Part shown: one piece after another, positions 10,991 through 39,731 of the stretch
How the letters are laid out: every line of letters starts with the position of its first letter
How positions within the stretch are numbered: position 1 is the stretch's first letter
NCBI GenBank assembly: GCA_001627335.1
Contig: LUPK01000013.1
Location: 1-64,000 of the forward strand
Origin: Nocardioides sp. REDSEA-S33_B3
Lineage (GTDB): Bacteria > Actinomycetota > Actinomycetes > Propionibacteriales > Nocardioidaceae
Direction of reading: 5' to 3'
Length of the DNA stretch: 64,000 nucleotides
Notes under the pieces: generated by a model
Database searches by the model: none
What the model saw: only the letters and a program-made list of their open reading frames with translations
What the model was told of the DNA's origin: nothing
Made by a program: the position numbers and the translations under genes

Positions 10991-10995
10991 ACAGA

Positions 10996-12723: not shown

Positions 12724-12737
12724 ATCTGCATACAGAT
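12724..12737. promoter_or_regulatory. CTGCATACAG-type operator
   Basis: ATCTGCATACAGAT, an inverted repeat of ATCTG around CATA, lies about 100 bp upstream of the VOC gene at 12836. It is one of seven related sites in the window (others at 14489, 20069, 20154, 33346, 33437, 38911). GntR/FCD regulators recognise short palindromes of this size; two such regulators are encoded nearby. Confidence 0.6.
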
Positions 12738-20068: not shown

Positions 20069-20078
20069 CTGTACACAG
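20069..20078. promoter_or_regulatory. CTGTACACAG operator, distal copy
   Basis: Differs from the perfect CTGTATACAG site by one base. With the copy at 20154 it forms a pair 85 bp apart, about eight helical turns, which could support looping or double occupancy upstream of the importer operon. Confidence 0.5.
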
Positions 20079-20153
20079 GTGTGTGCGCACAGTGAGGCGC
20101 AGAGCCCGGAAAACGTCGCTCCCGTGCGCTCAACACTCTTGACGGAATGTGAT

Positions 20154-20165
20154 TCTGCATACAGA
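20154..20165. promoter_or_regulatory. TCTGCATACAGA operator, proximal copy
   Basis: Inverted repeat TCTG/CAGA around CATA, 50 bp upstream of the transporter ATG. Same core as the sites at 12724 and 33437. Confidence 0.6.
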
Positions 20166-20214: not shown

Positions 20215-22971
20215 ATGAACGAGTTCATTCAGTTCGCAGTTATCGGCGTCGCCATCGGAGCCGTCTACGCGCTGCTGGCCCAGGGCCTCGTGCTCATCCA
20301 CCGCGCATCCGGGGTCGTGAACTTCTCGCAGGCGGCGTTCGCCGTTGTTGCCGGCTTTACCTTCGCGGCGCTCACACAGTCCTCCGGATGGGGAGCGTGG
20401 ACAGCATTCGGGTTCCTGACGGCGATGGGCTCTATCGCAGGGGTAGTGGTCTACGTCGTCGCCATCAGGCCGTTTCGCGATGTTTCGCAGCTCACGCGGA
20501 TCGCGGCAACGCTGGCGGTGCTCCTAATCGCGCAGGCGCTCGCGACGCTCAAATGGGGCGCGACCAGCGTGTTGGTGACGCCGTACCTCTCGTCGCGTCT
20601 CGTCGAGCTCGGTGGCGTGGTCATCAGCGTCGGTCAGATCACCCTCGCCGTCATCGCCTGTGTCCTGACTGTCGTTCTCTGGGCCGGGATGCGCTTCACG
20701 CTGCCGGGCATCGCGATCCGAGGAGTGGCCGAGAGTCGGCGAGCGACCGCAGCTCTCGGATGGTCCCCGGAACTACTCGCAGCCGGCTCGTGGGCACTGG
20801 CGGGTGCCCTCGGCGCCGCAGCTGGCGTGCTCATCGCGCCACTCACAGCCGTTCAGGTCAATCAGATGACCCTGCTGCTCGTCCCGGCGCTCGCCGCCGC
20901 ACTGTTCGGCCGATTCTCCTCGTTCCCAATGACGCTCGCCGGCGCGATGGGCATCGGCATCGCCCAGGCAGAGGCCAGCAACTACGTGCATATCCAAGGT
21001 GCTTCCGATGCGCTCCCACTCTTGGCAATCGTCATTGTCCTCATGGCGCGCGGCCAGGGGATCCCAATGCGCGGACAAGTGGCCGAACAGTCCGGAAAAC
21101 TAGGCACGGGGTGGATCTCGCCTCGCATCGTCATTCCTTGCGTTGTAGTCGTGGCAGCCCTCATGCTCACCACGTTCTCGCCGTCGCTCAACGACGCACT
21201 GACGGCCTCGATCGCCTTCGCCATCGTGCTGCTGTCAGTCGTTGTGATGACCGGCTACTGCGGGCAGCTCTCGCTCGCGCAGCTCTGCTTCAGTGGACTC
21301 GCCGCGCTCGTGGCGGGGCGACTTGTGGCGTTCTCGGGCGTGCCGTTTGTGCTCGCGGCATTGATCGGTGTCGTCGTGACCGTGCCGATCGGTCTGGCGT
21401 TCGCGATTCCCGCGCTACGCACTCGGGGAACGACGCTTGCAATTCTCACGCTTGCCATGGGTTCCGCCGTGACCCAAGTGGTGTTCAACAATGCCGACAT
21501 CATCGGAGGCGTCAACGGCACTGCGGTGGGTCCCCAGACCGTCTTCGGCATACCAATCGACAGTGTCAATCACTCTGGTCGGTACGGCGTGGTCGCTCTC
21601 CTGCTGTTCGGCGCGTGCGCGGTCATGGTGGCGAACGTGCGCCGAAGTCGAGTCGGTCGGCGCCTGCTCGCAGTGCGAGCGAACGAGCGAGGCGCGGCCG
21701 CCCTCGGCATCAACGTGTACTCGGCGAAGCTCTACGCCTTCGGTCTCTCGTCTGCGATCGCCGCCGTGGGCGGGATCATGATCGGCTTCCAGTTCGAGAC
21801 GATCGTCTACACAAGTTTCGATCCCTTCCAGTCGATCCTTGTGACCGGCTACGCCGTGATCGGCGGTGTGGGATACGTGAGCGGCGCGGTCCACGGTGCA
21901 GCGTTCGCTCCGGGTGGGGCCGGCGCCTGGATCCTCCAGGGCTTCGGCGCAGACGTCGAACGATACGTTCCCCTGATCGGAGGCGTGGGCCTCCTTCTCA
22001 TGCTCCTGCAGAATCCCAATGGGCTCGCGTTTGGCGGTGCACGTCTAGCAGATGCAATCCGTGCGCGTGCCCGTAGCGGTCGTGGACGTGCAACGATCAC
22101 AGCGTCCATGCCGGACGCCACCATCGAGAAGGTGCGGCCAGCACTGCTCGAAGTGCGTGACTTGGTCGTGCGCTTCGGAGGCGTCACCGCGGTCGACAAC
22201 GTATCGCTGACACTTAGGCCGGGTCGAATCTCAGGCCTGATCGGCCCCAATGGGGCCGGCAAGACCACAGTCATCGACGCCATTACGGGATTCGTTCGCC
22301 CGTCGAAGGGAACCGTGACCCTCGACGGCAAGCGGATCGAAAAGTGGTCGGTCCATCGTCGTGCCCGTGCCGGAGTGAGCCGGTCGTTCCAGTCGCTCGA
22401 GCTGTTCGAGGGCATCACGGTTCGGGAGAACCTCTTGGCCGCCTGCGAGCCACGTGATGCGAGCGCGTACGCCACGAGCCTCGCATGGTCCGGCCGAGGA
22501 GAACTCTCTGCTGCCGCCTGTTCCGCCATCCGAGAGTTTCAGCTCGAGGAGTACCTCGACAGGCATCCCTCCGAACTTCCCTACGGTGCCCGCCGACTGG
22601 TTGCGATCGCCCGGGCGATGGCATGTGAGCCGTCGACGCTTCTCCTCGACGAGCCGGCCGCCGGACTCGACGAGCAGGAAGCGGCCGAGATCGCGCGACT
22701 CGTCCGGGGTCTAGCGACGAGATGGGGGATCTCGATCCTCCTCATCGAGCACGACGTCGACTTCGTGATGAAGGTTTGCGACGACATCACTGTCCTCGAC
22801 TTCGGCTGCCAGATCGCTCACGGAACGCCAGACGAAGTGCGCCGAGACCCGCGTGTCATCGCGGCATACCTCGGCACCACTGACGTCGAAGTCGAAGAGC
22901 ACGTAGGCGCCACCGCCGGCTCACCAGATGACGTCGGTGACGTCGTCGTGCGTGAGAGGAGGGAGGGATGA
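20215..22971 (+). CDS. LivH-LivM-LivG fused ABC importer subunit
   Basis: 918 residues joining three normally separate proteins. Residues about 1-290 are a LivH-type permease, about 300-610 a LivM-type permease (TGYCGQLSLAQLCFSGLAAL is the LivM hallmark), and about 640-900 a LivG-type ATPase with Walker A GPNGAGKTTVIDAITG, signature LPYGARRLVAIARAM, Walker B TLLLDEPAAGLDEQE and switch His in LLIEHDVDFV. Imports an amino-acid-like or aromatic acid substrate with LivF and a binding lipoprotein. ATG 20215 follows GGAGGA; the stop overlaps livF. LivM-LivG fusions are known; the three-way fusion is less usual. Confidence 0.92.
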   Translation: MNEFIQFAVIGVAIGAVYALLAQGLVLIHRASGVVNFSQAAFAVVAGFTFAALTQSSGWGAWTAFGFLTAMGSIAGVVVYVVAIRPFRDVSQLTRIAATLAVLLIAQALATLKWGATSVLVTPYLSSRLVELGGVVISVGQITLAVIACVLTVVLWAGMRFTLPGIAIRGVAESRRATAALGWSPELLAAGSWALAGALGAAAGVLIAPLTAVQVNQMTLLLVPALAAALFGRFSSFPMTLAGAMGIGIAQAEASNYVHIQGASDALPLLAIVIVLMARGQGIPMRGQVAEQSGKLGTGWISPRIVIPCVVVVAALMLTTFSPSLNDALTASIAFAIVLLSVVVMTGYCGQLSLAQLCFSGLAALVAGRLVAFSGVPFVLAALIGVVVTVPIGLAFAIPALRTRGTTLAILTLAMGSAVTQVVFNNADIIGGVNGTAVGPQTVFGIPIDSVNHSGRYGVVALLLFGACAVMVANVRRSRVGRRLLAVRANERGAAALGINVYSAKLYAFGLSSAIAAVGGIMIGFQFETIVYTSFDPFQSILVTGYAVIGGVGYVSGAVHGAAFAPGGAGAWILQGFGADVERYVPLIGGVGLLLMLLQNPNGLAFGGARLADAIRARARSGRGRATITASMPDATIEKVRPALLEVRDLVVRFGGVTAVDNVSLTLRPGRISGLIGPNGAGKTTVIDAITGFVRPSKGTVTLDGKRIEKWSVHRRARAGVSRSFQSLELFEGITVRENLLAACEPRDASAYATSLAWSGRGELSAAACSAIREFQLEEYLDRHPSELPYGARRLVAIARAMACEPSTLLLDEPAAGLDEQEAAEIARLVRGLATRWGISILLIEHDVDFVMKVCDDITVLDFGCQIAHGTPDEVRRDPRVIAAYLGTTDVEVEEHVGATAGSPDDVGDVVVRERREG

Positions 22972-23663
22972 ACGAGCTGCTTTCGGTCGACAACCTCCAG
23001 GCCGGCTACGGCGATCACCCGGTCGTGCGCGACCTCTGTCTGCAGGTGCACGCCGGCGAAGTCGTCGCCCTTCTAGGCCCTAACGGGGCGGGCAAGAGCA
23101 CAACGCTACTCACGCTCGCCGGAGACCTCTCGCCCATCGCGGGGGTCGTGCGCATGTTCGGGGCAGATTCGACCGACCCCCTACACCGCCGAGCGCGACG
23201 CGGAATGGCGCTCGTGACGGAGGAAAGGTCGGTGCTGATGGGACTCACCGTCGCGGAGAACCTCCGGCTCGGGCGCTGTGATGTCGCGCGCGCGATTGCA
23301 CTCTTCCCCGAACTGGAGCGGCTGATGAACCGTCGCTGCGGGCTGCTGTCGGGTGGCGAGCAGCAAATCGTCACCCTGGCACGCGCCATTGCCCGCGAGC
23401 CACGACTCCTTCTCGCAGACGAACTGTCCCTTGGTCTGGCTCCGCTCGTGGTCCGCCGCTTGTTGGAAACAGTCCGCCAAGCAGCCGACGAAGACGGCAT
23501 CGGTGCCCTACTCGTCGAGCAGCACGTCAGCCAGGTCCTGCGTATCGCGGACCGTGCCTACGTGATGGATCGCGGCCGAATCGTCTTCAGCGGCGATCCA
23601 GCGGATGTGGCTCGGCACATCGGTACCACAGGAATGTCAAGTAGCCACGGCGCGCAGCAATGA
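22968..23663 (+). CDS. livF: LivF-type ABC transporter ATPase
   Basis: 231 residues: Walker A GPNGAGKSTTLLTLAG, signature LLSGGEQQIVTLARA, Walker B RLLLADELSLGLAP and switch His in LLVEQHVSQVL. It pairs with the ATPase domain of the fused subunit on the inner face of the membrane. ATGA overlap with the fused gene. The signature and downstream Glu are present, so it should be active. Confidence 0.93.
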   Translation: MNELLSVDNLQAGYGDHPVVRDLCLQVHAGEVVALLGPNGAGKSTTLLTLAGDLSPIAGVVRMFGADSTDPLHRRARRGMALVTEERSVLMGLTVAENLRLGRCDVARAIALFPELERLMNRRCGLLSGGEQQIVTLARAIAREPRLLLADELSLGLAPLVVRRLLETVRQAADEDGIGALLVEQHVSQVLRIADRAYVMDRGRIVFSGDPADVARHIGTTGMSSSHGAQQ

Positions 23664-23723
23664 GCGCACGGCGATGAGCGCACAGCAACGAGTTGAGCGC
23701 GCGATCAGAAGGAGAGGAACAGA

Positions 23724-24995
23724 ATGAACCCACTGAGTCGTCGAGCTCGTTGGCCTGGCGCGATTGCCGCCATGGTCGGCGTAGCCCTCACGGTCACTGC
23801 CTGCGGCGACGGAGGCTCTGAAGGCGGTGACGCCAACACCAACCAGGCGGGCCTCACCGGTGAACCCATCAAGGTGATGGTGACTGCCCCCCAGGGCAAC
23901 CCGCTCGCAGACTTCCCCGGCGTCTTCGCAGGCGCGCAGGCCGCCGCGCTCGCAGTCAACGATGCAGGAGGCATCGGCGGCCGACCCATCGAGATCATCA
24001 CCTGCAACAATGAACTCTCGCCCAACAAGAGCAAGTCGTGCGCCCGAGACGCTGGCAATGCCGGCGTGGTGGCCTATGCCGGATGGGACGCGCTCGCCTC
24101 GGTCGCCTACTCGACGCTGGCGTCCAAGGGCATTCCCTCGGTGTTGTCTGCGGTGAACGGCTCTGAATTCCAGACCGAGACCCAGTTCCCGGTGAGCGGC
24201 GGGCTGTTCGGCGAACTCTACGGCCAAGCGCTCGTAGCCGAGTCGGCCGGCGCGGAGACCGTGGCTATCGTCGCCGTCCAATTCCCGGGGGCCGAAGAGA
24301 ACCTGCAGAACACCCAGGACGTCGCTAGGTCGCTGGGCGTCGACGTCGTTGACGTCATCGAAGTGGCGCCGACGCAAACGACCTTCTCCTCGACCGTCGA
24401 ACAGCTGCGAGACTCTGACCCTGACATGGTTCTGATCAGCAACGGACCCCCGCAGAGCACGACGCTTGTGCAGTCGGCAGCCCAGCTTGGTTACACGCCG
24501 AAGTGGGGATACTTCGCTGCGCCGAACAACGAGCGAGACTTCAAGACCATCGCCCAGAACGCTGGCAGCGGAGCGCTCTGGATGGTGTCGGCATTGCCGC
24601 CAGCATCGGCCGGCGACCAGTTCCCGGGAATCTCGAAGTACAACGCCGAGATGGACAACGCCGCGGACAACAACATCGATAACGCGGACGCGGACAACCG
24701 TAACGAGAACTCGATCGATGCCTGGCTCCAAATCCACGCCCTTGCCGAAGTCGCGGCGACAATCACCGGACCGGTGACCAGCGAGTCGATGCTCGCCGCC
24801 CTGAAGACGACGACGGATCTGGATGTGGAAGGACTCGTCACGTGGTCGCCGGGCGGCGAGGGAACGTCTCGGTATCCGAAGTTGTCCGATGACATGGCCC
24901 TCTATGTCGGCCCTGTGGAGGACGGCGTGTACGCGCCCGAGTCGGACGAGCCCGTTCGCGTGCTCGACATCGCCGGGACAGCCACCGGTGGCTAG
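23724..24995 (+). CDS. branched-chain-type substrate-binding lipoprotein
   Basis: 423 residues. Signal peptide with a lipobox (VALTVTACGDGG; Cys about residue 27), a Gly/Asn-rich linker, then a type-1 periplasmic-binding fold (IKVMVTAPQGNPLADFPG, AALAVNDAGGIGGRPIEIIT). It delivers substrate to the fused importer upstream. Catabolic clusters often use this subfamily for aromatic acids, so the ligand need not be an amino acid. ATG 23724 follows GAGAGGA. The gene is 60 bp after livF in the same operon, and a strong hairpin follows. Confidence 0.93.
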   Translation: MNPLSRRARWPGAIAAMVGVALTVTACGDGGSEGGDANTNQAGLTGEPIKVMVTAPQGNPLADFPGVFAGAQAAALAVNDAGGIGGRPIEIITCNNELSPNKSKSCARDAGNAGVVAYAGWDALASVAYSTLASKGIPSVLSAVNGSEFQTETQFPVSGGLFGELYGQALVAESAGAETVAIVAVQFPGAEENLQNTQDVARSLGVDVVDVIEVAPTQTTFSSTVEQLRDSDPDMVLISNGPPQSTTLVQSAAQLGYTPKWGYFAAPNNERDFKTIAQNAGSGALWMVSALPPASAGDQFPGISKYNAEMDNAADNNIDNADADNRNENSIDAWLQIHALAEVAATITGPVTSESMLAALKTTTDLDVEGLVTWSPGGEGTSRYPKLSDDMALYVGPVEDGVYAPESDEPVRVLDIAGTATGG

Positions 24996-25080: not shown

Positions 25081-25133
25081 TCGGCTGGGGATGCACACTC
25101 GCCTGCCCGCAGACGCTAGAAGAAGGAACAGCA

Positions 25134-25943
25134 ATGACGAACCAGCACTCAGTAGATGACGTGATTCGCACCTACTTCGACGCCGTGCAACGGGGCGATC
25201 AGGAGCGCATCCGAGCGAGTCTCGCTGAAGACGCCACGTTCTGGATCCATGGCAACCTCCCGATCAGCGGTACGTACGAGGGTCGCGACGCGATCGTCGA
25301 TGGGCTCTTCCAGGGAGCGCTCTCGCGCTTCGAGCCCGGCTCGCTCACTGTTGAACTGACGAGCACCTTCGTGTCGGAAGACCATGCTGCGGCCGAGTGG
25401 GTATCGCGTGCTCGCACGCCGACAGGGACTCAATACGAGAACTGCTGCAGCGGGATCTTCGTCGTTCGCGATGGCGTGATCACGTCAGTGCGCGAGTACA
25501 TGGACACTCAGGCTGATGCCGAGAGTTGGCGTTCGGTGCCTGGACGCTCGGCCGGAGCGCCGACTAAGCTCAGGCCGGCCGGGATGGAGTCGATGCAAGG
25601 CACCGGCGTCGACGAGGCCCTGGGCTACTACTGGGAGCTGTTCGAGGACTGGTTCATTCCGCTCTTCGGACAGGAGCTTCCGGCTCGCTCGAAGCTCGAC
25701 AGGAAGACGGCGGAACTCATCACGGTCGTACTCTGCGCTGTTCGTGGTGCGGAGGCGAGCCTCCACGCTCACGCTCGCATGGCGATTGAACACGGGGCCA
25801 CGCTCGACGAGCTACGAGGCGTGATGCTGCTGACGATCCCGTCGATGGGTATCCCTGCTGCTCTCGAGGGCCTGGCCATGGTCGAGTCAGGTTTCCATGC
25901 ATCAGCGGGCGCCGACGCAAAGGAGGTAGCGCCCGACTCGTAA
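25134..25943 (+). CDS. SnoaL-like / carboxymuconolactone decarboxylase-like fusion
   Basis: 269 residues in two domains. About 5-130 is a SnoaL/NTF2-like fold (VDDVIRTYFDAVQRGDQERI, YEGRDAIVDGLF, FVVRDGVITSVREYMDT). About 160-260 is an AhpD/CMD-like helical domain (SKLDRKTAELITVVLCAVRG, LHAHARMAIEHGATLDELRG). The usual CMD Cys-x-x-Cys is absent, so it resembles the decarboxylase/lactonase branch rather than AhpD peroxidases. Such fusions suggest a two-step conversion of an unstable intermediate. ATG 25134 follows AGAAGGA. The end overlaps a decayed minus-strand HxlR gene. Confidence 0.82.
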   Translation: MTNQHSVDDVIRTYFDAVQRGDQERIRASLAEDATFWIHGNLPISGTYEGRDAIVDGLFQGALSRFEPGSLTVELTSTFVSEDHAAAEWVSRARTPTGTQYENCCSGIFVVRDGVITSVREYMDTQADAESWRSVPGRSAGAPTKLRPAGMESMQGTGVDEALGYYWELFEDWFIPLFGQELPARSKLDRKTAELITVVLCAVRGAEASLHAHARMAIEHGATLDELRGVMLLTIPSMGIPAALEGLAMVESGFHASAGADAKEVAPDS

Positions 25944-26940: not shown

Positions 26941-26949
26941 CGCGCGACC

Positions 26950-31385: not shown

Positions 31386-32351
31386 TCAGACAACCGGCGT
31401 GGCGTGTGTATGAAAGGTCTCCGGGACATCCTGTCCCCACGCCGTGGAGCGAGCTTCAGATTCGGTGTTCCACGTCACGGGTTCCCAATCCGGAGCAGTG
31501 ATGTGCAACCCGCCAAAAATGAGTTCGACGCGGTTTCCTCCGGGTTCGAGGACGTAGAGGAAGAACCCCTGCGTCCTAAGGTGCTTCGCCGGCCCGAACT
31601 CAATGGGCGTGCCCAGTTCCATGAACAGGTCGGCGGCTCGAAGGATTGCCGAGCTGTCCTCGACGGCGTACGCGATGTGGTGCAGGCGCCCATGTTGTCC
31701 CGCTACCGGTTCCCGAGTGATTGCCAGATCGTGCGCCTTGTTCATCAAACTCATCCACGCGCCTACTTCTGGTGCGCCTGGAGGGACAAGTCGCTCGCGC
31801 AGTTTGAAGCCCAGCGTGCTCGACATGAACTCGCGCGCTTCAGGAACACCGCCGGCCAAGACGTTCAAGTGGTCGATCCGAGCGGCGCCAACTCCCCGAC
31901 TCACGGAACTCTGGGGCTGATTCAAGAGGTAGGACGTCGAATCTTCGGATGCAACGTAGCGTTCGGATTCGTAGTAGATCTCCATGAGCTGGCCACTGGG
32001 CGAGCGAAATTGGAACGCCGCTCCATGGCCGATGTCACCGTCGATCCATTCGCCAGCCACACCTTGGTTCCGCAGAGCGGACACCCTGCGTGCGAGCGCG
32101 GCGGCGCTGGTTGTACGCCATCCCACGTGACCGAGGCCAGCGACAGGGGCGGCGGTCAGTTTCAGTGTGCTGAGGTCATGGTCGCCCCAGCCCCTCAAGT
32201 AGACGCTGGATCCTGTTACGGCCACCATCGTGAGCCCGTACACCTCGAGGAAGAACGCCAGACTTTCGTCGAAGCGAGGTGTCAGCAGTTCAACGTGACC
32301 TAAATGGGCCAGATCGTAGATCGGTTCCTCCGCCGCCTGCGTCTCAGGCAT
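31386..32351 (-). CDS. catechol 2,3-dioxygenase-family extradiol dioxygenase
   Basis: 321 residues, two VOC domains as in type I extradiol dioxygenases. N-domain about 15-140 (LGHVELLTPRFDESLAFFLE); C-domain about 155-290. The facial triad is visible: His in IDHLNVL or LGHVEL, His in RLHHIAYAVED (about 224) and Glu in PGGNRVELIFGG (about 280). It opens an ortho-dihydroxylated (or aminohydroxylated) ring adjacent to the hydroxyls. The start overlaps the upstream CMD stop by 8 bp. This is the best ring-cleavage candidate in the window. Confidence 0.88.
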   Translation of the reverse strand: MPETQAAEEPIYDLAHLGHVELLTPRFDESLAFFLEVYGLTMVAVTGSSVYLRGWGDHDLSTLKLTAAPVAGLGHVGWRTTSAAALARRVSALRNQGVAGEWIDGDIGHGAAFQFRSPSGQLMEIYYESERYVASEDSTSYLLNQPQSSVSRGVGAARIDHLNVLAGGVPEAREFMSSTLGFKLRERLVPPGAPEVGAWMSLMNKAHDLAITREPVAGQHGRLHHIAYAVEDSSAILRAADLFMELGTPIEFGPAKHLRTQGFFLYVLEPGGNRVELIFGGLHITAPDWEPVTWNTESEARSTAWGQDVPETFHTHATPVV

Positions 32352-32769
32352 GACCTTGGGTCTCCATCAGAGCGATGTCAGCCAACACTTGGGGTCCCCG
32401 GTTGGCGGCTGAGTATCCAGTGAAGAGGAAGGCCAGGTTGACGACCGCCTGCAGCTCGTCCCAGCTTGCACCGGCCCTCCGAGCGGCGAGGCCGTGGAGT
32501 GCCGCGGCATCGCTCAACTTCGAGTGGAGAACTCCGAAGAGAACGAGTTGAACCGTCTTTTGGTCCAAGGCCTCGGGGTACATCGCTAGATGTCGCAGTT
32601 TCTCCTGCGCGAGGAGCAGGGCGGGATCACGCTGTGCTTCTGCGTCGAAGCGTGCAGCGACACGTGAGGGGACGAAGCCGACGAGTTCTTCGTAGGTGGC
32701 GCGGAGGGCCGCAATCGTCTGCTCCTCATCCACGCTCGTCTGACGGATGCGGGACAGTTCATCACTCAC
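32344..32769 (-). CDS. carboxymuconolactone decarboxylase-family protein 2
   Basis: 141 residues, CMD fold: TIAALRATYEELVGFVPSRV, EKLRHLAMYPEALDQKTVQL, VLHSKLSDAAALHGLAARRA. It lacks the AhpD CxxC. It starts at GTG 32769, overlapping CMD 1 by 8 bp; its end overlaps the dioxygenase by 8 bp. The tight triple overlap implies equimolar products, and CMD 1 and 2 may form a hetero-oligomer. Role likely decarboxylation or isomerisation of the ring-cleavage product; not an antioxidant AhpD. Confidence 0.82.
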   Translation of the reverse strand: MSDELSRIRQTSVDEEQTIAALRATYEELVGFVPSRVAARFDAEAQRDPALLLAQEKLRHLAMYPEALDQKTVQLVLFGVLHSKLSDAAALHGLAARRAGASWDELQAVVNLAFLFTGYSAANRGPQVLADIALMETQGHA

Positions 32770-33175
32770 TGTCGTTGCCTTCGAGTGGAATCGCGATGCC
32801 CTTGGCGGCGAAGACCGCCTTGGCGACATCGAGGCCGCGGATTGTGCGGGGGTGTCCTGCATAGATCGACACGTGGAAGATCGCTTCGATGATCTCAGCC
32901 GGGCTGACCCCGACATGGAGGGCTCCGCGCATGTGCGCGGTGAGCAGCTTTTCGGTATCGCCAAGCGCGGTCAGGACTGCCACGTTGATGAGCTGGCGTT
33001 GCTGATGCGACAGATCGGGGCGGCCGTAGACGTCCGCGAACCCGGTCTCTACAACGAACTTGAAGAAGTCCGGGCTGATCTCGCTGATCGGATTCCCAAT
33101 CCTCGCGAGAGACCCGGACCCGTGGATCTCGTTCATGATTTCGATACCGCGGTCGTACTTCGTGTCCTGTGACAT
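32762..33175 (-). CDS. carboxymuconolactone decarboxylase-family protein 1
   Basis: 137 residues. Close to gamma-carboxymuconolactone decarboxylase: YDRGIEIMNEIHG at the N-terminus, SPDFFKFVVETGFADVYGRP, LSHQQRQLINVAVLTALGDT and LTAHMRGALHVGVSPAEIIE with the conserved His and Glu of the active site. In the classic beta-ketoadipate route it converts 4-carboxymuconolactone to enol-lactone; here there is no PcaB or PcaG/H, so a related substrate is likely. First gene of the minus-strand operon, about 170 bp from the operator at 33346. Confidence 0.87.
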   Translation of the reverse strand: MSQDTKYDRGIEIMNEIHGSGSLARIGNPISEISPDFFKFVVETGFADVYGRPDLSHQQRQLINVAVLTALGDTEKLLTAHMRGALHVGVSPAEIIEAIFHVSIYAGHPRTIRGLDVAKAVFAAKGIAIPLEGNDSE

Positions 33176-33345: not shown

Positions 33346-33359
33346 TTCTGTACACAGAA
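33346..33359. promoter_or_regulatory. TTCTGTACACAGAA operator (minus-strand operon)
   Basis: Inverted repeat TTCTGT/ACAGAA-like site 171 bp upstream of the CMD 1 start, in the divergent promoter region 33176-33460. It faces the site at 33437, suggesting that one regulator controls both divergent operons. Confidence 0.6.
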
Positions 33360-33460: not shown

Positions 33461-34540
33461 ATGAAGGCGATTAGGCCGCCGAGGACACCGCGGGGCTTGG
33501 CGTTCACCCCCGGCTACGCCCTCAACCCTGGGGCGCGGATCATCCCGTTGGGAGTGGTCACCCCCGAACGGGACGGTGCCGTCAATCCATCGATTGCCCA
33601 ACAGACCGCGGACTGCCTCGCGAACGTTGACGACATGCTGGCCCGACTTGGCAACAGCGCTCGTGCCGTCAAGATGACGCTCTGCATGACCGACGTGAGA
33701 GAGGTCTGGGACAGCAACGCCGTCTTCGACAAGCACTACGCCAGCGACGAACGCCCGAATCCCGCCAAGACACTCCTTGAGGTCTCGGCCTGCTCGGTGC
33801 CGGGTGCACGTTTCGAAGTAGACGTCTGGGCGGTCGTTGAGCCCGACGGCGGCTCAGTGACTCGGGCCGGAGACGTGCGGGTTGCCCACGGGCAGGCCGG
33901 TGAAGCAGCCGGTGCTGGCCTCGAGGCTGAGTTGGAGAGCTGTGTCAATGCGATCGATCAGGCACTAGCCGCCTCGCGCGATGACCGGGCGCAGGTCGCA
34001 AGGCTCGCTGTGCACCTCGCCGACATGAGTGACTGGTCGCTCTGCCGGCAGATCCTGGAAAGGCAGTTCGACCCGGCTCAGACGGTGCTGGTGCCACTGG
34101 CGGTTACGAAGGTCGGCCAGGTGGGTGCCCGCGTTGAGCTCAGTGCCTGGACCGAAGGGCCTGCTCAGCCGGCCAACGCCGGCGATCCGACGATCCTTGC
34201 GATCTCCGGCAGCGCGGCGATTCCGATGTACATCGGCGGCGAGGCTTCGGATCTTTACAAGTATCGACCTGTGGCAGACATCCGCGATCAGGTCGAGGTC
34301 TGTCTGAACAACTACGCGAACATCCTCCAGACAGCTGGCTCCAGTTGGGACGACATCTTCGAAACAACTTGGCACCTCACTGACCGACGGGAATGGGACG
34401 CCGTTGCAGAGGTTGTCGAGAAGTGGTTTGGACGACCTGTCCCTAACCCCACGGTGATCGAAGTCCCCAAGTTCGTTCTCCCCGGAGTGCGAGTCGAGAT
34501 TGATATGTGGGGAACCATCCCCGCTGGCGGAACGGCGTAG
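33461..34540 (+). CDS. triple RidA/YjgF-domain protein
   Basis: 359 residues made of three consecutive RidA-like domains (about 10-125, 130-240, 245-355), each ending in a beta strand of the type FEVDVWAVVE, VELSAWTEG or VEIDMWGTI. RidA proteins hydrolyse enamines/imines; 2-aminomuconate deaminases also use this fold. The catalytic Arg of canonical RidA sits in a P-A-R-S motif. Here the three equivalents read PAKT, PAQT and NPTV, so none has the Arg, as in Rid4-7 subfamilies. It could be a deaminase with another mechanism or a scaffold. ATG 33461 follows GGAGG. First gene of an eight-gene operon. Confidence 0.85.
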   Translation: MKAIRPPRTPRGLAFTPGYALNPGARIIPLGVVTPERDGAVNPSIAQQTADCLANVDDMLARLGNSARAVKMTLCMTDVREVWDSNAVFDKHYASDERPNPAKTLLEVSACSVPGARFEVDVWAVVEPDGGSVTRAGDVRVAHGQAGEAAGAGLEAELESCVNAIDQALAASRDDRAQVARLAVHLADMSDWSLCRQILERQFDPAQTVLVPLAVTKVGQVGARVELSAWTEGPAQPANAGDPTILAISGSAAIPMYIGGEASDLYKYRPVADIRDQVEVCLNNYANILQTAGSSWDDIFETTWHLTDRREWDAVAEVVEKWFGRPVPNPTVIEVPKFVLPGVRVEIDMWGTIPAGGTA

Positions 34541-34551
34541 GGGCTGCGTCG

Positions 34552-35331
34552 ATGGACATCGCCCAGAAGAGCGCCCTAGTCGTTGGCGGTTCACAAGGTC
34601 TCGGCGAAGCAACGGTACGTGCCCTTGTTGCCGCTGGCGCCTTTGTGGTTATCGCCGACGTGAACGAGGAGGAGGGCACTCGCCTTGCGGCCGAACTGGG
34701 TGACCGGGCGCTCTTCGTCAAGGCGGACGTCGCGGATGCCGGTCAGGTCGCGTCTGCGGTGTCCGTCGCTGCCGAGGCGGCAGGGGGATTGCGTATCTCC
34801 GTTTGCTGCGCAGGAATCACCGCGCAGCAACCCATCGCCGACGAGAGTGGGCCGCACTCTCTCCAGACGTTCGTCGATGTCATGAACGTCAACCTGCTCG
34901 GCACGTTCAACGTGCTACGCGAGGCGTCCGCGGCCATGGTCGCCAACGAGCCGAGCGTGAGTGGCGAGCGGGGGGTCTGCATCAATGTTGCCTCCATCAC
35001 TGCCCTCGATGGGCCGCGGGGATCCATTGCCTACACGGCATCCAAGGCGGCCGTCGTGGGGATGACACTGCCGGCGGCACGAGATCTCGCCAGTACTGGC
35101 ATCCGGGTCTGCGCCATCGCGCCAGGCACATTCGACACCCCAATGACCCGTCATGTCCCGGATGCTCTGCGCGAGCATCTCAGTGCCGCACAGATGTGGC
35201 CACAACGCTTCGGGCGCCCGGACGAGTTCGCAGCGCTCGTGTGCCATATCGCGACTAACGAGATGCTAAACGGCGAGACCATCCGTCTTGACGGCGCCGT
35301 GCGGGTCCCACCTATTCGGAAGAGCACCTAG
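34552..35331 (+). CDS. SDR-family dehydrogenase (HSD10-like)
   Basis: 259 residues: VVGGSQGLGEATVRAL cofactor motif, VIADVNEEEG (Asp favouring NAD+), NVASITALDG with catalytic Ser, and YTASKAAVVGM (Tyr/Lys). The ALVVGGSQGLG start and RPDEFAALVCHIATNEMLNG tail resemble type-2 3-hydroxyacyl-CoA dehydrogenases. Likely oxidises a hydroxyl intermediate with NAD+. ATG 34552, 11 bp after the RidA gene. Confidence 0.87.
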   Translation: MDIAQKSALVVGGSQGLGEATVRALVAAGAFVVIADVNEEEGTRLAAELGDRALFVKADVADAGQVASAVSVAAEAAGGLRISVCCAGITAQQPIADESGPHSLQTFVDVMNVNLLGTFNVLREASAAMVANEPSVSGERGVCINVASITALDGPRGSIAYTASKAAVVGMTLPAARDLASTGIRVCAIAPGTFDTPMTRHVPDALREHLSAAQMWPQRFGRPDEFAALVCHIATNEMLNGETIRLDGAVRVPPIRKST

Positions 35332-35488
35332 CGTGCGTCCACCCTCGTCGCCGCACCGGTGGCGGAGTCATTCGTCAGTGGCTCCTAGCGCGTAGACGCA
35401 TTGTGCGATCTCTACGCCGGGCAGGCAACTGATGCGGCGACCAATCTCGTAGTCCGTGGCAGCACACTTCGTTAGTAAGGATTCGATC

Positions 35489-36052
35489 GTGACTTCAACC
35501 ACCACAGAGCCTTGGCCGGCGGTCGATGGGGTCTGGGAGCTGGACACAGTCCACTCTCGGGTCGCGTTCGCGGTCGACTTCGTCGCAGGCCCGTTCTGGG
35601 CCGAGTTCAGTGAGTTCGACGCGACCTTGGACGCACGAACGGGAGACATCAGTCTGGAGGGCAGCGCGCTCGCCGAGTCTGTCAACGTCACGTTGCCGCC
35701 GTTTCGCGCGCATCTTTTGGGCCCGGAGTTTTTCGACGCAGTCGATCATCCCCGCATCCTGTTCCGGTCGGAGCGTTGTGAGACGCAGGGCTCACAGCTG
35801 GATATGACGGCAAGCCTCTGTGTCCGGGGAGTGTGGCAGCAGTGTGTCGGTAGCGGGACCCTGTACGGCCCGGTCCGAAACCAGTTCGGTGCGGTTGTCG
35901 TGGGGGTCTCTCTCAGGGCTGACGTAGACCGACACCGGTTCGGTCTGGACTGGCAGGTCGCCCTGCCAGGGGGCAAAGGCGGGCTGGCCGACATGGTGCG
36001 ACTGGAATCAGACCTTCAGTTTGTCTTCCGAGAGGACGAGGCAGTCTCATGA
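35489..36052 (+). CDS. YceI-family protein
   Basis: 187 residues, lipocalin-like YceI fold: WELDTVHSRVAFAVDFVAGP, FSEFDATLDARTGD, HLLGPEFFDAVDHPRILFRS. YceI proteins bind long isoprenoid or amphipathic ligands; no catalytic role is established. No signal peptide, so cytoplasmic. I chose GTG 35489 (AAGGA at 7 nt) over the in-frame ATG 35456. The stop overlaps the amidase start (ATGA). Its place in a catabolic operon suggests binding of a hydrophobic substrate or intermediate. Confidence 0.85.
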   Translation: MTSTTTEPWPAVDGVWELDTVHSRVAFAVDFVAGPFWAEFSEFDATLDARTGDISLEGSALAESVNVTLPPFRAHLLGPEFFDAVDHPRILFRSERCETQGSQLDMTASLCVRGVWQQCVGSGTLYGPVRNQFGAVVVGVSLRADVDRHRFGLDWQVALPGGKGGLADMVRLESDLQFVFREDEAVS

Positions 36053-36789
36053 CCGAAGTGCGTGGCGAGGCCGAACGACTCCACCTTGACGCGAAGCCGG
36101 CCGCGCTGGAAATGCAAGTCCAGCGCACAGCTGTCGTCGTCGTCGACATGCAGAACGACTTCTGCACACCCGGAGGGAGCGTGGAAACGGCGGGGTTTGA
36201 TCTTTCGCTGGTGCGGTCCATCATCCCTGCTATCGCGGACGTGCTCAGTTGTGCACGATCCATCGGGCTACAGGTGATCTATCTGCAGCATGGTTACAGG
36301 CCGGATCTGTCCGACCTCGGCCCGCCGGAGTCGCGCAACGCAATCGCCCACTTGGCGGCGGGAGTAGGAACACCATTCGCCGCACCAGACGGCTCGATGG
36401 GTCGAATAGGCGTTCACGACACCTGGAACACTCAGATCATCGACGAACTCGCCCCGCAGCCCGGGGACGTCGTCATTCGCAAGAACCGCTTCAGTGGGTT
36501 TCACGACACGCCCTTGGAGTCGACCCTGTCGTCATCCGGTATCGAAACCTTGGTCGTCACGGGCTGCACCACGAGCATCTGCGTTGAAGCGCTCGTCAGG
36601 GATGCGATGTACCGCGACTATCGGCCCATTGTCCTTTCGGACTGCACTGCCGAGCCGCAGGGTCAGGCTAACCACGACGCCTCGCTGGCCATCATCGAGT
36701 CGACCCTCGGTTGGGTATCTGAATCGCGCCACCTGCACGCGGCCGCAGAAGCGCTTCGGCCAGGGCCTGAGACGGGAAGCCCGACATGA
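36049..36789 (+). CDS. isochorismatase-family amidase, RutB-like
   Basis: 246 residues, cysteine hydrolase. Catalytic Asp in VVVVDMQNDFCTPGGS (about 27), Lys in DVVIRKNRFSGFHDTPLES (about 146) and Cys in TSICVEALVRDAMYRDY (about 181). The NRFSGFHDTPLES block and VETAGFDLSLVRSIIPAI are close to ureidoacrylate amidohydrolase RutB; maleamate and N-carbamoylsarcosine amidases share the fold. It should hydrolyse an amide or carbamate to acid plus ammonia. ATGA overlaps on both sides. With RidA domains in the same operon (RutC is also RidA-type) a nitrogen-containing substrate is likely. Confidence 0.85.
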   Translation: MTEVRGEAERLHLDAKPAALEMQVQRTAVVVVDMQNDFCTPGGSVETAGFDLSLVRSIIPAIADVLSCARSIGLQVIYLQHGYRPDLSDLGPPESRNAIAHLAAGVGTPFAAPDGSMGRIGVHDTWNTQIIDELAPQPGDVVIRKNRFSGFHDTPLESTLSSSGIETLVVTGCTTSICVEALVRDAMYRDYRPIVLSDCTAEPQGQANHDASLAIIESTLGWVSESRHLHAAAEALRPGPETGSPT

Positions 36790-37595
36790 ACGACTGGACG
36801 GTGCAGCGAGCTGCGATCGAGCTGCGCGAGCGTCAGACGCTCGCCCGTGCAGGAGGAAGGCTCGTGGACGTCTGGGAAGAACTCGATCTAGACGTCGCCT
36901 ACGAAACCCAGACGGCCCTACTGCGCCACATGGAGCAGGACGGGGACGCGGTTGTTGGCGTCAAGCTTGGGCTCACATCGCCGGCGAAGCAGAAGCGGAT
37001 GGGGATCTCGACTCCCCTCACTGCTTGGCTCACCGACGCGATGACCCTCCAGGACGGCGAAGCGCTGTCCCTAGACGGCCTGATCCATCCACGCGTCGAG
37101 CCAGAGATCGTCTTCGTGATGGGAGAAAGGCTAGAAGGTCCGGGGGTGACCGCAGGCCAGGCGTTAGCGGCTGTGCGTACCGTCCACGCAGGCCTCGAGG
37201 TTATCGACAGCAGATTCGCGGACTTCCATTTCACTCTGCCGGACGTGGTTGCGGACAACGCCTCCGCTGCGCGCTTCATGGTCAGCGATCGAGGCGTAGA
37301 TCCGCGGTCTGTCGATCTTGCGGCGGAAGCCTGTCGGATCTCCCTCAATGGAGTGGTCGCGGAAACAGGAACAGGTGCTGACGTCCAGGGACACCCCGCC
37401 GAGGCATTGGCGCTCGCAGTCAACTCCCTGGGCAAGCGCGGGCTCGCGCTCGAGGCCGGGTGGATCATCCTCACAGGCGGAATCACTGACGCGGTGCCTT
37501 TCGGCCCCGGCGATCTAGTACACGTCGAGTTCGCAAACTTGGGCGCGCTGACCATGAGGAGCACAGGGAGCACAGGGTCGGGACGGCTCGACTGA
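36786..37595 (+). CDS. 4-oxalocrotonate decarboxylase-like hydratase-family protein
   Basis: 269 residues, paralogue of the 9264 hydratase. VVGVKLGLTSPAKQKRMGIS followed by TPLTAWLTDAM matches the decarboxylase branch (DmpH/XylI/AmnE), which converts 2-oxo-hexenedioate to 2-hydroxypentadienoate and works bound to the hydratase. PRVEPEIVFVMG and RFADFHFTLPDVVADNASAA supply the metal-site acids. The decarboxylase and hydratase lie about 27 kb apart in different operons, which is unusual. Overlaps the amidase (ATGA) and the next gene (TGATG). Confidence 0.85.
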   Translation: MNDWTVQRAAIELRERQTLARAGGRLVDVWEELDLDVAYETQTALLRHMEQDGDAVVGVKLGLTSPAKQKRMGISTPLTAWLTDAMTLQDGEALSLDGLIHPRVEPEIVFVMGERLEGPGVTAGQALAAVRTVHAGLEVIDSRFADFHFTLPDVVADNASAARFMVSDRGVDPRSVDLAAEACRISLNGVVAETGTGADVQGHPAEALALAVNSLGKRGLALEAGWIILTGGITDAVPFGPGDLVHVEFANLGALTMRSTGSTGSGRLD

Positions 37596-38053
37596 TGGAT
37601 TCGAAGAGCCAGCGTGCGCCTGACCGAGAGGAATGTGCGCCGAACGCTCGAGGAGATTCGGCGCGCGACGAGCTCTCGAGAACGCCGACAGAGACCGTCC
37701 ACTCGATGGTCCGGCTCTTCAACGAAGGTGACCTGGACGCAGCACAAGCTCTGCTCTCGCCGAGAGTGGTAAACCACGCCGCACCCATCGGTACTGACTC
37801 GGGATGGCGAGGATGGCGGGCGTTCTGGGAGTCCGTGCGACGCGGGTACCCGGACTTCCACGCTTCCATCGAGCAGACTTGCGAAGCAGGTGACATCGTC
37901 GCCACTCAGTACACGATGCGCGGCACGCACACTGACGAGTTCTTGGGCTCTGCAGCGACAGGACGGCGCTTCGAGGCACGCGCGATGGACATCATGAGGG
38001 TTCGTGATGGTCAGATCGTCGAACATTGGGGGGTCAGTGAGCCCTGGGGTTGA
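37595..38053 (+). CDS. SnoaL-like ester cyclase-family protein
   Basis: 152 residues. After a disordered charged stretch of about 30, a SnoaL_2 fold: TVHSMVRLFNEGDLDAAQAL, VVNHAAP, WRAFWESVRRGYPDFHASIE, IVATQYTMRGTHTDEFLG, FEARAMDIMRVRDGQIVEHW. Members are cyclases, isomerases or hydrolases without a common reaction. TGATG overlap with the decarboxylase-like gene. A different SnoaL protein occurs at 25134 fused to CMD. Confidence 0.82.
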   Translation: MDSKSQRAPDREECAPNARGDSARDELSRTPTETVHSMVRLFNEGDLDAAQALLSPRVVNHAAPIGTDSGWRGWRAFWESVRRGYPDFHASIEQTCEAGDIVATQYTMRGTHTDEFLGSAATGRRFEARAMDIMRVRDGQIVEHWGVSEPWG

Positions 38054-38173
38054 TGACATCGAGCCGGCACAGGATCGGGCTCCGCGCACTGGCGTCCCAC
38101 TCCGGGGTGCCTTCGGCGGGCCATTCCTACCTGGAGAAGCGCCTTCGATCATCCGCAGTGGGTGTGAAGGGGC

Positions 38174-38830
38174 GTGCTGACTCTCCTCCGCGTCGATGCG
38201 AGTCCACGGGACGCGCGCTCCCGTAGTCGCGCGCTGACCGCGCAGTTCGAGAATCAGTGGCGAACGCGTCATCCAGACGGGCGCGTGGTGATGCGTGACA
38301 TAGCGCGAGATCCGCCACCGTTCGTCAGTGAGGCATGGATGGAGGGGGCCTTCGCGTCGGCTGATGTGCGGAGCCCTGCCGCTCTCGACGCGCTCGCGAT
38401 CTCAGATGGCTATGTGAACGAGGTTCTGTGCGCAGACCACATTGTCATCGGTACGCCGATGTACAACTTCGGCTGCCCGGCTGTTCTCAAGGCTTGGGTT
38501 GATCAAGTCGTTCGAGTGAACCGTACGGTGAGGATCGTCGGGGGCGGCTTCGCCGGTCTGGCGACCGGTACATCGGTCTCGGTCCTCGTGGCCTGTAGCG
38601 GAGATCCGCGGCCAACGACACGTGGTGCAGCGACGAACTTTCTGGAACCGTATCTGCGCTCGGTCCTTGCGTTTATTGGAATCGACGACGTCGACTTCGT
38701 GTACGCGCACAGCCAGAACCCGATGACCGTCGACGATGCTCAGATGCACGCTGATCGTGCATTGAGTGAGGCGCGGGCAACCATCGAGCAACTCGTCGCA
38801 CGGACTGCCGAACGTTGTCACCGCAGGTAG
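38174..38830 (+). CDS. FMN-dependent NAD(P)H oxidoreductase, azoreductase-like
   Basis: 218 residues, flavodoxin-like fold of the AzoR/NQO group: LLRVDASPRDARSRSRALTA phosphate loop, GTPMYNFGCPAVLKAWVDQV (flavin-binding and dimer motif), SVLVACSGDPRP and FLEPYLRSVLAFIGIDDVDF. It reduces quinones, azo or nitro groups with NAD(P)H. In this operon it could protect against quinones from catechol/aminophenol oxidation or reduce a nitro/azo parent compound. GTG 38174 follows AAGGGG. Confidence 0.85.
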   Translation: MLTLLRVDASPRDARSRSRALTAQFENQWRTRHPDGRVVMRDIARDPPPFVSEAWMEGAFASADVRSPAALDALAISDGYVNEVLCADHIVIGTPMYNFGCPAVLKAWVDQVVRVNRTVRIVGGGFAGLATGTSVSVLVACSGDPRPTTRGAATNFLEPYLRSVLAFIGIDDVDFVYAHSQNPMTVDDAQMHADRALSEARATIEQLVARTAERCHRR

Positions 38831-38910
38831 CCGTGGAGCTATCCCAAGTCGACGGCATTCTGTGTGAGTGGTCGTGGCTATATGCGGTGATCCGCGAGAG
38901 GACGGATAGA

Positions 38911-38920
38911 CTGTCCACAG
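38911..38920. promoter_or_regulatory. CTGTCCACAG operator-like site before gntR2
   Basis: A one-base variant of the recurring palindrome, 40 bp upstream of the second GntR gene. Consistent with autoregulation; weaker than the other copies. Confidence 0.4.
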
Positions 38921-38960
38921 TGTCGCGACAGGCTACGAGACGATCGGAAACAAGAATCCT

Positions 38961-39731
38961 GTGGAGATGATCGATGCGCGCGCCGACGATGAATCGGTAG
39001 ACCAGGCGCAGTCTGAGCCCTCGTCGGCGACGGCTTCACCGGGGTTCGACCTTTACGATCAGTTGCGCAACGACATTCTTGATGGTCGCCTTGCGCCTGG
39101 CACGGTCATCTCCCAGGTCCAACTTGCCAAGCAGATGGGGGTGAGTCGCACCCCACTGCGAGAGGCCATCCGCAGACTGCAGCAGGAGGGCCTGGTCGAG
39201 GCGGACTTCAACCGTCGCGCGCGCGTGGCTCAGGTGGATCCCAGCACGCTCGAGCAGATATTCACAGAACGGATCATGCACGAGACTCTTGCCTTGGGCG
39301 TGAGTCTGCAGCACATGCGGCCATCAGATCTGGATGAGATCGATCGGCTCTCGGACGAGATGCGTGAGTCGAAGACGGCCGGCAGGTTTGATGAATGGGA
39401 TGAGGCTCACCGCGCCTTCCACCGGCAGCTAGCCCTGCGGGCGAGCGATCACTTGAGGAGTCGAATCTCGCTCCTCACGCAGCAAGGAGCCCGCTTTCGG
39501 CCGATGGCGGAGAACACGTCGGACAGAAGCTGGACCGCGTGGGACATCGACCACGAAAAGATCGCTCAGGCATGTCGTGAGGGGCGACGTCGTGACGCGA
39601 TCGCGACTCTCGCGCGGCACCTTGCTCGCTCCGCAACGTCCTTGCTCGGCTCGGTCGCGCCGGAGTATGACGCCATCCAAGTTAGGACGATCCTCGAGAT
39701 CGTCGCCGGGGACGTCTCCCTCGATCGTTAA
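38961..39731 (+). CDS. GntR/FCD-family transcriptional regulator 2
   Basis: 256 residues. Residues about 28-95 form the GntR winged helix (YDQLRNDILDGRLAPGTVIS, MGVSRTPLREAIRRLQQEGL, FNRRARVAQV). About 100-235 is the helical FCD ligand domain with metal-ligand positions in EWDEAHRAFHRQL. It ends LGSVAPEYDAIQVRTILEIV, matching the severed tail of regulator 1. GTG 38961. The two proteins share the recognition-helix sequence, so they probably bind the same palindromes; this copy is the only intact one in the window. Confidence 0.93.
   Translation: MEMIDARADDESVDQAQSEPSSATASPGFDLYDQLRNDILDGRLAPGTVISQVQLAKQMGVSRTPLREAIRRLQQEGLVEADFNRRARVAQVDPSTLEQIFTERIMHETLALGVSLQHMRPSDLDEIDRLSDEMRESKTAGRFDEWDEAHRAFHRQLALRASDHLRSRISLLTQQGARFRPMAENTSDRSWTAWDIDHEKIAQACREGRRRDAIATLARHLARSATSLLGSVAPEYDAIQVRTILEIVAGDVSLDR

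What the first reader, a model, noticed from the sequence alone, without database searches (positions are those of the whole stretch)
33461..39731. Candidate undescribed catabolic system: triple RidA, RutB-like amidase, oxalocrotonate decarboxylase, azoreductase under GntR control
An eight-gene coupled operon pairs nitrogen-removing folds (RidA domains, RutB-like amidase) with meta-cleavage decarboxylation and an azo/nitro/quinone-type flavoenzyme. With the C23O/CMD operon facing it and the hydratase-aldolase-dehydrogenase operon at 9-12 kb, it can take an aminated or amidated aromatic to pyruvate and acetyl-CoA. It matches no complete pathway I know (aminophenol amn, nicotinate nic, pyrimidine rut) gene for gene. 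Missing here: ring oxygenase and semialdehyde dehydrogenase.
Basis: inference. Interest (0 to 1): 0.85.

Follow-up and report, generated by a model that had tools for sequence, protein, structure and literature searches.

The report
One-regulon aromatic ring-breaking gene island
A low-GC stretch of an actinobacterial genome carries genes that look like aromatic-ring-breaking enzymes, a triple-domain Rid protein, an amidase and a transporter, and four of its operons have the same pair of DNA motifs upstream; it is likely one switch-controlled pathway that would break down a nitrogen-bearing aromatic compound, but neither the compound nor any single reaction has been tested.

Summary
The operon is real and largely as described: triple Rid protein (RidA3), SDR, YceI, RutB-like amidase, 4-oxalocrotonate-decarboxylase-like enzyme (DmpH), SnoaL, azoreductase-like flavoprotein and GntR, facing CMD1-CMD2-C23O, inside a low-GC island (catabolic genes 0.605-0.662, flanks 0.70-0.75).

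New: the palindrome CTGYAYACAG occurs eight times in the window, as four pairs, each 24-208 nt upstream of an island operon (VOC; FAH/OYE/amidohydrolase/GntR; ABC transporter; RidA3, divergent from C23O). Shuffles: mean 0.117, no pair in 1000. The island is probably one GntR regulon, larger than reported.

Corrections: none of the three Rid domains keeps the imine-hydrolase arginine (K/L/P), so 'nitrogen-removing RidA' is unsupported. C23O relatives of 60% identity or more pair with CMD2 in 7 of 7 loci (window included); in 5 of 5 genomes of one unnamed genus they lie in a quinate/shikimate-to-protocatechuate context, pointing to a carboxylated catechol. The own genome (87.67% complete) shows no 4-OT and no Rieske oxygenase.

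A RidA3-like triple protein was found in no other genome searched. Best reading: a protocatechuate-2,3-cleavage-like pathway rebuilt with an amidase and a non-canonical Rid enzyme. Substrate unknown. New variant of a known kind.

The parts
33461..34540 (+). RidA3: single-chain triple Rid (PF01042) protein, 359 aa
   Evidence: K/L/P at the Arg105 position, Glu120 kept in all three domains
34552..35331 (+). SDR oxidoreductase
   Evidence: PF00106 152 bits
35456..36052 (+). YceI-domain protein, no NCBIfam match
   Evidence: 10 homologues at E<=1e-5, itself included
36049..36789 (+). RutB-like isochorismatase-fold amidase; Asp33, Lys145, Cys178 present
36786..37595 (+). 4-oxalocrotonate (2-oxo-3-hexenedioate) decarboxylase-like, called DmpH36 here
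   Evidence: TIGR03218 233.8 bits (cut-off 350.55)
37595..38053 (+). SnoaL-like protein
38174..38830 (+). azoreductase/quinone-reductase-like flavoprotein (Flavodoxin_2)
38961..39731 (+). GntR-FCD regulator (56% identical to the one at 17739-18440)
32762..33175 (-). CMD1, PcaC-like carboxymuconolactone decarboxylase family
32344..32769 (-). CMD2, conserved partner of this C23O subfamily
31386..32351 (-). catechol 2,3-dioxygenase-like extradiol enzyme (C23O)
   Evidence: TIGR03211 296.7 bits (cut-off 320.2)
33346..33359 (.). operator-like palindrome TTCTGTACACAGAA
33437..33446 (.). operator-like palindrome CTGCATACAG, pair of the previous one
14413..14498 (.). operator-like pair (14413, 14489) upstream of the FAH gene
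12628..12735 (.). operator-like pair (12628, 12726) upstream of the VOC gene
20069..20164 (.). operator-like pair (20069, 20155) upstream of the ABC transporter
12836..13369 (+). single-domain VOC protein (extradiol-dioxygenase-like)
13478..14218 (+). SDR oxidoreductase
14540..15466 (+). FAH-family hydrolase/isomerase
15522..16697 (+). Old Yellow Enzyme-family reductase
16687..17679 (+). Amidohydro_2 protein, nearest solved relative ACMSD (124 bits)
17739..18440 (+). GntR-FCD regulator, paralogue
20215..24995 (+). branched-chain-amino-acid-type ABC transporter: 918-aa protein with LivG-like ATPase end, second ATPase, binding protein
   Evidence: the permease parts are read by eye from the translation
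25131..25943 (+). SnoaL-CMD fusion
9264..12000 (+). 2-oxopentenoate hydratase, acylating acetaldehyde dehydrogenase, 4-hydroxy-2-oxovalerate aldolase (IclR at 8437-9198 on the other strand)

Best explanation
Four operons of a low-GC island share paired CTGYAYACAG motifs and are therefore likely one GntR-controlled regulon, which would take up an aromatic compound, open its ring with the catechol-2,3-dioxygenase-like enzyme, strip nitrogen after ring opening with the RutB-like amidase, and pass the carbon through the decarboxylase-like enzyme, hydratase, aldolase and acetaldehyde dehydrogenase to pyruvate and acetyl-CoA. Shown: gene content, paired motifs, the C23O-CMD2-DmpH core in other genomes, and the absence of the imine-hydrolase arginine in RidA3. 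Inferred: the ring substrate is a carboxylated catechol of the protocatechuate type, because the same C23O-CMD2 pair in five relatives is followed by a 3-dehydroshikimate-dehydratase-like gene. CMD2 would decarboxylate the ring-cleavage product. Where the ring carries an amino group on the cleaved bond, extradiol cleavage would give an amide instead of an aldehyde; RutB36 would hydrolyse it to the acid and ammonia. RidA3, probably a pseudo-trimer with one strongly conserved patch (ISGSAAIPxYxG), would then do the enol-to-keto isomerisation that 4-oxalocrotonate tautomerase (4-OT) would do in three of the relatives and for which no tautomerase gene was found in this genome. The OYE/FAH/amidohydrolase operon would be an upper route. 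No reaction has been tested.
For: Operator-like pairs: 8 sites, 4 pairs, all upstream of island operons; island shuffles mean 0.117, maximum 2, no pair in 1000; 17 strand matches against 1.81 expected with one mismatch in CTGTAYACAG. Two GntR paralogues 56% identical. Catabolic genes 0.605-0.662 GC against 0.70-0.75 in the flanks. 3-dehydroshikimate-dehydratase-like gene next to C23O in 5 of 5 of the unnamed-genus loci (3 of the 5 scanned against families). 4-OT-like gene between DmpH and CMD2 in 3 of 5 but no PF01361 match in the own genome. RutB catalytic residues kept.
Against: No gene here makes a carboxylated catechol for certain, and none of the four quinate/shikimate proteins has a match in the window or the rest of the contig. 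The own genome is 87.67% complete, so absent genes may be missed. The relatives also lack an intact aldehyde dehydrogenase nearby, so its absence is no argument for an amide route. Two of the five relatives (20-kb stretch only) and the whole Embleya record show no 4-OT either, so RidA3 need not replace it. Of 80 RutB-like relatives none had a match to RidA3, DmpH36 or the CMDs in the stretch held; one (L045) had weak C23O (19%) and FAH (39%) matches, one (L063) a VOC match (31%) and three an amidohydrolase match (27-32%) (many stretches are cut short by contig ends). The RidA3 model is moderate (pLDDT 79.3) and its conserved loop 252-268 is low confidence. The motif was first read off two of the eight sites and its degenerate form set after seeing the rest. 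No GntR binding was tested.
Confidence: 0.35

Rival explanations
1. Ordinary protocatechuate- or catechol-type 2,3-cleavage: the semialdehyde is oxidised by one of the aldehyde dehydrogenases coded elsewhere, tautomerisation is spontaneous or coded in the missing part of the genome, and RutB36 and RidA3 belong to an upper step (for example deamidation of the substrate).
For: 12 aldehyde-dehydrogenase matches elsewhere in the genome; five relatives have the same core without an intact aldehyde dehydrogenase nearby; Embleya has one beside the core.
Against: None of the 12 exceeds the hydroxymuconic-semialdehyde-dehydrogenase cut-off (best 424.4 of 693.25 bits); RidA3 and RutB36 sit in the same gene row as the decarboxylase-like gene, and the stretches of the core relatives show no match to either.
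Confidence: 0.3
2. A variant of the aminophenol routes (amn, nba, or the 4-amino-3-hydroxybenzoate route of Bordetella sp. 10d): RidA3 is a deaminase of an amino-muconate or amino-carboxymuconic semialdehyde feeding DmpH36, and the ACMSD-like amidohydrolase decarboxylates an earlier intermediate.
For: AmnE-type deaminases are Rid-fold and their product is 4-oxalocrotonate (PMC6742747, passages); Rid proteins are proposed to deaminate ring-opened aminated compounds in other strains (PMC7118221 and PMC9420511, passages); ACMSD is the nearest solved relative of 16687-17679; hydratase, aldolase and acetaldehyde dehydrogenase present.
Against: The arginine needed for deaminase activity is K/L/P in the three domains (RutC R104A is inactive); no aldehyde dehydrogenase on this contig.
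Confidence: 0.15
3. RidA3 and RutB36 are damage-control enzymes: extradiol products cyclise with ammonia to pyridine carboxylates, and these proteins reverse or pre-empt such adducts.
For: The PraA ring-fission product cyclises with ammonia to pyridine-2,5-dicarboxylate (PMC7814577, passages); Rid proteins are known for damage pre-emption (PMC4433059, passages).
Against: Absence of the imine-hydrolase arginine; the stretches of the core relatives show neither protein.
Confidence: 0.1
4. A chance patchwork of acquired genes, partly decayed, with no common pathway.
For: Transposase-like frames at several places and a broken nadC.
Against: Paired motifs before four operons, intact frames, and a conserved C23O-CMD2-DmpH core.
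Confidence: 0.06

Closest known systems
Protocatechuate 2,3-cleavage (pra) pathway of Paenibacillus
   Same: Extradiol enzyme, 4-oxalocrotonate-decarboxylase-like enzyme, hydratase, aldolase and acetaldehyde dehydrogenase; a decarboxylase-family gene (CMD2) beside the dioxygenase
   Different: No aldehyde dehydrogenase on the contig and no tautomerase found in the genome; RidA3, RutB36, YceI, SDR, SnoaL and azoreductase-like genes added; that CMD2 does the job of PraH is not tested, and no Pra sequence was compared
Modified meta-cleavage (amn, nba; 4-amino-3-hydroxybenzoate route) of aminophenols
   Same: Rid-fold protein before a 4-oxalocrotonate-decarboxylase-like enzyme, same lower pathway (nba gene content is recalled)
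   Different: Rid protein is a triple fusion without the catalytic arginine; VOC-type dioxygenase; extra amidase; no linked aldehyde dehydrogenase
3x-RidA proteins (EF_0115 type; Niehaus et al. 2015, PMC4433059)
   Same: Three Rid domains in one chain
   Different: Described there as a subset of RidA; here the RidA arginine is absent. No sequence comparison with EF_0115 was made
Pyrimidine rut pathway (RutB, RutC)
   Same: RutB-like amidase in one gene row with a Rid-fold gene
   Different: Below the curated RutB and RutC cut-offs; here with meta-cleavage genes

Membership tests
RidA / 2-aminomuconate imine deaminase | Arginine equivalent to E. coli RidA Arg105 | tested here: not met
   K, L, P in domains 1, 2, 3; also no R in the nine domains of P0002-P0004 (P0005 not included). 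Domain 3 P also follows from the alignment to 2dyy. Domain 2 could be read as Q by eye; R in no reading
RidA / 2-aminomuconate imine deaminase | Glutamate equivalent to Glu120 | tested here: met
   E in all three domains of the window protein
3x-RidA architecture | Three Rid domains in one chain | tested here: met
RutB (ureidoacrylate amidohydrolase) | Score above the curated RutB cut-off | tested here: not met
   183.9 of 377.95 bits
RutB-like cysteine amidohydrolases | Asp/Lys/Cys catalytic triad | tested here: met
   Asp33, Lys145, Cys178 (triad from PMC5806882, passages)
pra pathway | Protocatechuate 2,3-dioxygenase activity of the C23O | not testable with these tools
   context only; no PraA sequence was compared
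pra pathway | Linked hydroxymuconic-semialdehyde dehydrogenase (PraB) | tested here: not met
   12 aldehyde-dehydrogenase matches in the genome, none on contig C5, none above cut-off
pra pathway | 4-oxalocrotonate tautomerase (PraC) | tested here: not met
   no PF01361 match in the 87.67% complete genome
pra pathway | Decarboxylase, hydratase, aldolase, acetaldehyde dehydrogenase | tested here: met
   decarboxylase and hydratase below their curated cut-offs, aldolase and dehydrogenase above
amn / nba | LigAB-type 2-aminophenol dioxygenase or cupin 3-hydroxyanthranilate dioxygenase | not tested
   own genome not searched for these families

The most novel reading that the evidence does not exclude
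RidA3 founds a new catalytic type of the Rid fold: a covalent pseudo-trimer that has lost the imine-hydrolase arginine and keeps one specialised site, acting as a tautomerase or hydrolase on a ring-cleavage product, in an undescribed pathway that opens an aminated carboxycatechol to an amide and releases its nitrogen with a RutB-like amidase, all run by one GntR regulon.
Probability: 0.22. Interest if true: 0.75.

Novelty: new variant of a known kind. Interest (0 to 1): 0.55.

Why it matters
Rid proteins without the arginine (Rid4-7) were of unknown function when reviewed (PMC4433059, passages). Here a Rid protein without it lies in a gene row with an amidase and a decarboxylase-like enzyme and in a regulon delimited by a shared motif, so its substrate can be looked for. 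It would also show how a meta-cleavage route is adapted to nitrogen-bearing rings, which matters for the fate of aminated aromatics in soil and water.

Tried and rejected
Triple Rid as a unique architecture: rejected, '3x-RidA' is in print. RidA3 as chorismatase or cyclic-amide hydrolase: Foldseek ranks chorismatases 1 to 4 and cyanuric acid hydrolase TrzD fifth, but with TM-scores of about 0.25 and rmsd of 19-21 A; for P0001-P0004 no Pfam family but PF01042 reaches its cut-off even with E up to 10. VIA-align does not list those two folds among its 50 rows, which excludes nothing.

Missing aldehyde dehydrogenase as proof of an amide route: dropped when the five relatives also showed no intact one. 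In G425 a stretch of L138 (about 5770-6239) gives weak pieces of one (35% over 75 residues, E 0.013), so a broken one may lie there.

Finding the cluster elsewhere: RidA3 was not found in genome contigs with two strict patterns (27 stretches matched, 0 confirmed). Genome searches, all of which count the own genome: 58 relatives (25 with a match, all others than the own one partial, best E 1.2e-7); 394 of the class (231 with a match at E 0.001; best other match E 1e-13 over positions 270-385 of 387; only 4 candidates a genome were scored and the match list was cut); 396 of the phylum (1 at E 1e-30, the own genome). The samples overlap, and a distant triple Rid protein is not excluded. Two plasmid records match parts (34% and 22% of the query). 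In the protein collection there are 5 matches, itself included (only the 7995 candidates sharing most words were scored), with no context available. Amidase relatives: 80 loci kept of 132, none with a match to RidA3, DmpH36 or the CMDs. The next-best relatives of RidA3 (67%), RutB36 (68%) and YceI (56%) all come from one source and stand well above the rest, which hints at a second lineage with the same operon; not shown.

A search with TTGTATACAA gave nothing above chance (1 match, 1.11 expected); the motif was then read by eye. Inverted-repeat search of five stretches did not report it. Literature: none of the listings of searches showed a paper that joins a Rid protein, an isochorismatase-type amidase and extradiol cleavage in one cluster (0 papers with all three terms); PMC9420511 and PMC7118221 propose Rid proteins with extradiol enzymes (passages). 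The library holds open-licence papers only, and the listings were not read in full text.


Full report
OBSERVATION. Translation and family scans confirm the eight genes at 33461-39731 and the facing operon, which is CMD1 (32762-33175), CMD2 (32344-32769) and C23O (31386-32351). Tight coupling holds for RidA3-SDR and for YceI-RutB-DmpH-SnoaL; three gaps of 120-157 nt make 'one coupled operon' uncertain. The lower pathway lies at 9264-12000 beside an IclR gene; its acetaldehyde dehydrogenase and aldolase exceed the curated cut-offs.

SETTING. The catabolic genes between 8.4 and 27 kb and between 31.3 and 39.8 kb are 0.605-0.662 GC, the flanks 0.70-0.75; the pyruvate carboxylase gene between the two parts is 0.713. 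Transposase-like frames sit at 4-8 kb, 18.4-19.3 kb and about 39.8 kb (my reading of the translations, recalled motifs). The window starts at the start of contig C5, 81,104 bases long.

ONE REGULON. Two similar palindromes, ATTCTGTACACAGAA at 33.3 kb and ATTCTGTATACAGTA at 14.5 kb, were seen by eye. Allowing one mismatch in CTGTAYACAG gives 17 strand matches, 1.81 expected. The form CTGYAYACAG, either strand, has eight sites in 64 kb: 12628/12726, 14413/14489, 20069/20155, 33348/33437, spaced 98, 76, 86 and 89 nt, starting 24-208 nt upstream of VOC, FAH, the ABC transporter and RidA3. In 1000 dinucleotide shuffles of the island the mean is 0.117, the maximum 2, and no pair spaced 60-110 nt occurs. 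Two sites served to define the pattern, and the degenerate form was set after seeing the others; the pairing and position are the independent part. A site with one mismatch lies 50 nt before the GntR gene at 38961. Both GntR proteins carry FCD domains and are 56% identical, so they are the natural candidates to bind; that is inference. Exact CTGTAYACAG was found in 6 of 164 loci, all six being pieces of this window's own region. The hydratase operon has no such site.

AMIDASE. RutB36 aligns to E. coli RutB over residues 13-227 (162 bits) and keeps the triad. Of nine residues listed as conserved for the family (PMC5806882, passages), eight are present by a constant offset of three positions; the ninth, a threonine, is leucine here (position 182). 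RutB is reported to have gamma-lactamase activity (PMC12553813, abstract start in the listing), so a lactam substrate is possible.

THE C23O-CMD2 CORE ELSEWHERE. Embleya sp. NBC_00888 carries C23O (73%), CMD2 (65%), DmpH (53%), hydratase, dehydrogenase and aldolase (50, 68, 75%), IclR (41%), and an aldehyde dehydrogenase (257.7 bits against the hydroxymuconic-semialdehyde model, cut-off 693.25). In a sample of 392 genomes of the genus of G425 (unnamed; size and number suggest Streptomyces), 5 hold a C23O at E 1e-110 or better: three at 71%, two at 60%. The two at 60% are near-identical clusters, so the five are not five independent cases. All five have CMD2 next to C23O, a DmpH-type gene, aldolase and acetaldehyde dehydrogenase, and a gene like the QuiC 3-dehydroshikimate dehydratase directly after C23O (59.9-68.8 bits in the 3 of 5 scanned, against a 635-position model with cut-off 1200). 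Shikimate dehydrogenase and type II dehydroquinase match in the loci of all five, the shikimate transporter in 4 of 5 (the G425 dehydrogenase is split between my two stretches). Three of five hold a 4-OT-like gene between DmpH and CMD2. None shows an intact match to the Embleya aldehyde dehydrogenase, nor any match to RidA3 or RutB36, in the stretches examined. So this C23O subfamily probably cleaves protocatechuate or a close carboxycatechol, and CMD2 is the candidate decarboxylase of its product (pra pathway outline from PMC10765951, passages; the primary paper, Kasai 2009, was not held). Among 40-45% homologues, 0 of 17 loci of about 3.9 kb show CMD2 (4 of the 17 were also checked over 20 kb).

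OWN GENOME. No PF01361 tautomerase and no PF00848 ring-hydroxylating oxygenase were found (in the control genomes these families ring in 6 and 4 of 14). The 12 aldehyde dehydrogenase matches all score below the 2-hydroxymuconic-semialdehyde cut-off and none is on contig C5. PF01494 gives 14 matches, one clearly stronger (E 6.1e-19, contig C50); this family rings in 14 of 14 controls, so the weak ones say little. Completeness is 87.67%.

MECHANISM. The ends of the 4-oxalocrotonate branch (C23O, DmpH) are kept, the middle differs: no 4-OT gene detected, while RidA3, an SDR and RutB36 are added. I commit to an amide route: extradiol cleavage next to an amino group yields an amide, RutB36 releases ammonia, RidA3 isomerises, DmpH decarboxylates. 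Each of these steps is inferred. The rival that aldehyde oxidation is coded elsewhere and RutB36 acts earlier is nearly as likely. A deaminase role as in aminophenol pathways (PMC6742747, PMC7118221, passages) is less likely for want of the arginine.

VERDICT. New variant of a known kind.

Noticed in passing
20215-22971: A 918-aa protein appears to fuse two branched-chain-type permease parts (read by eye) with a LivG-like ATPase; its operon carries the paired motif.
   Followed up: partly
26380-27800: Remnants of a nadC gene (QRPTase_N match) apparently broken into frames, with what looks like a fragment of another gene ahead of it.
   Followed up: partly
16687-17679: The ACMSD-like amidohydrolase has Q-x-H (DVQAH) where, from recall, ACMSD has H-x-H; other ligand-like residues (H174, H224, D290) are present.
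   Followed up: partly
25131-25943: SnoaL domain fused to a CMD domain, third CMD-type protein of the island.
   Followed up: no
38911-38920: CTGTCCACAG, one mismatch from CTGTAYACAG, 50 nt before the GntR gene: possible autoregulation.
   Followed up: no
27866-31264: Pyruvate carboxylase with GC 0.713 splits the low-GC island into two parts.
   Followed up: no
   Followed up: partly
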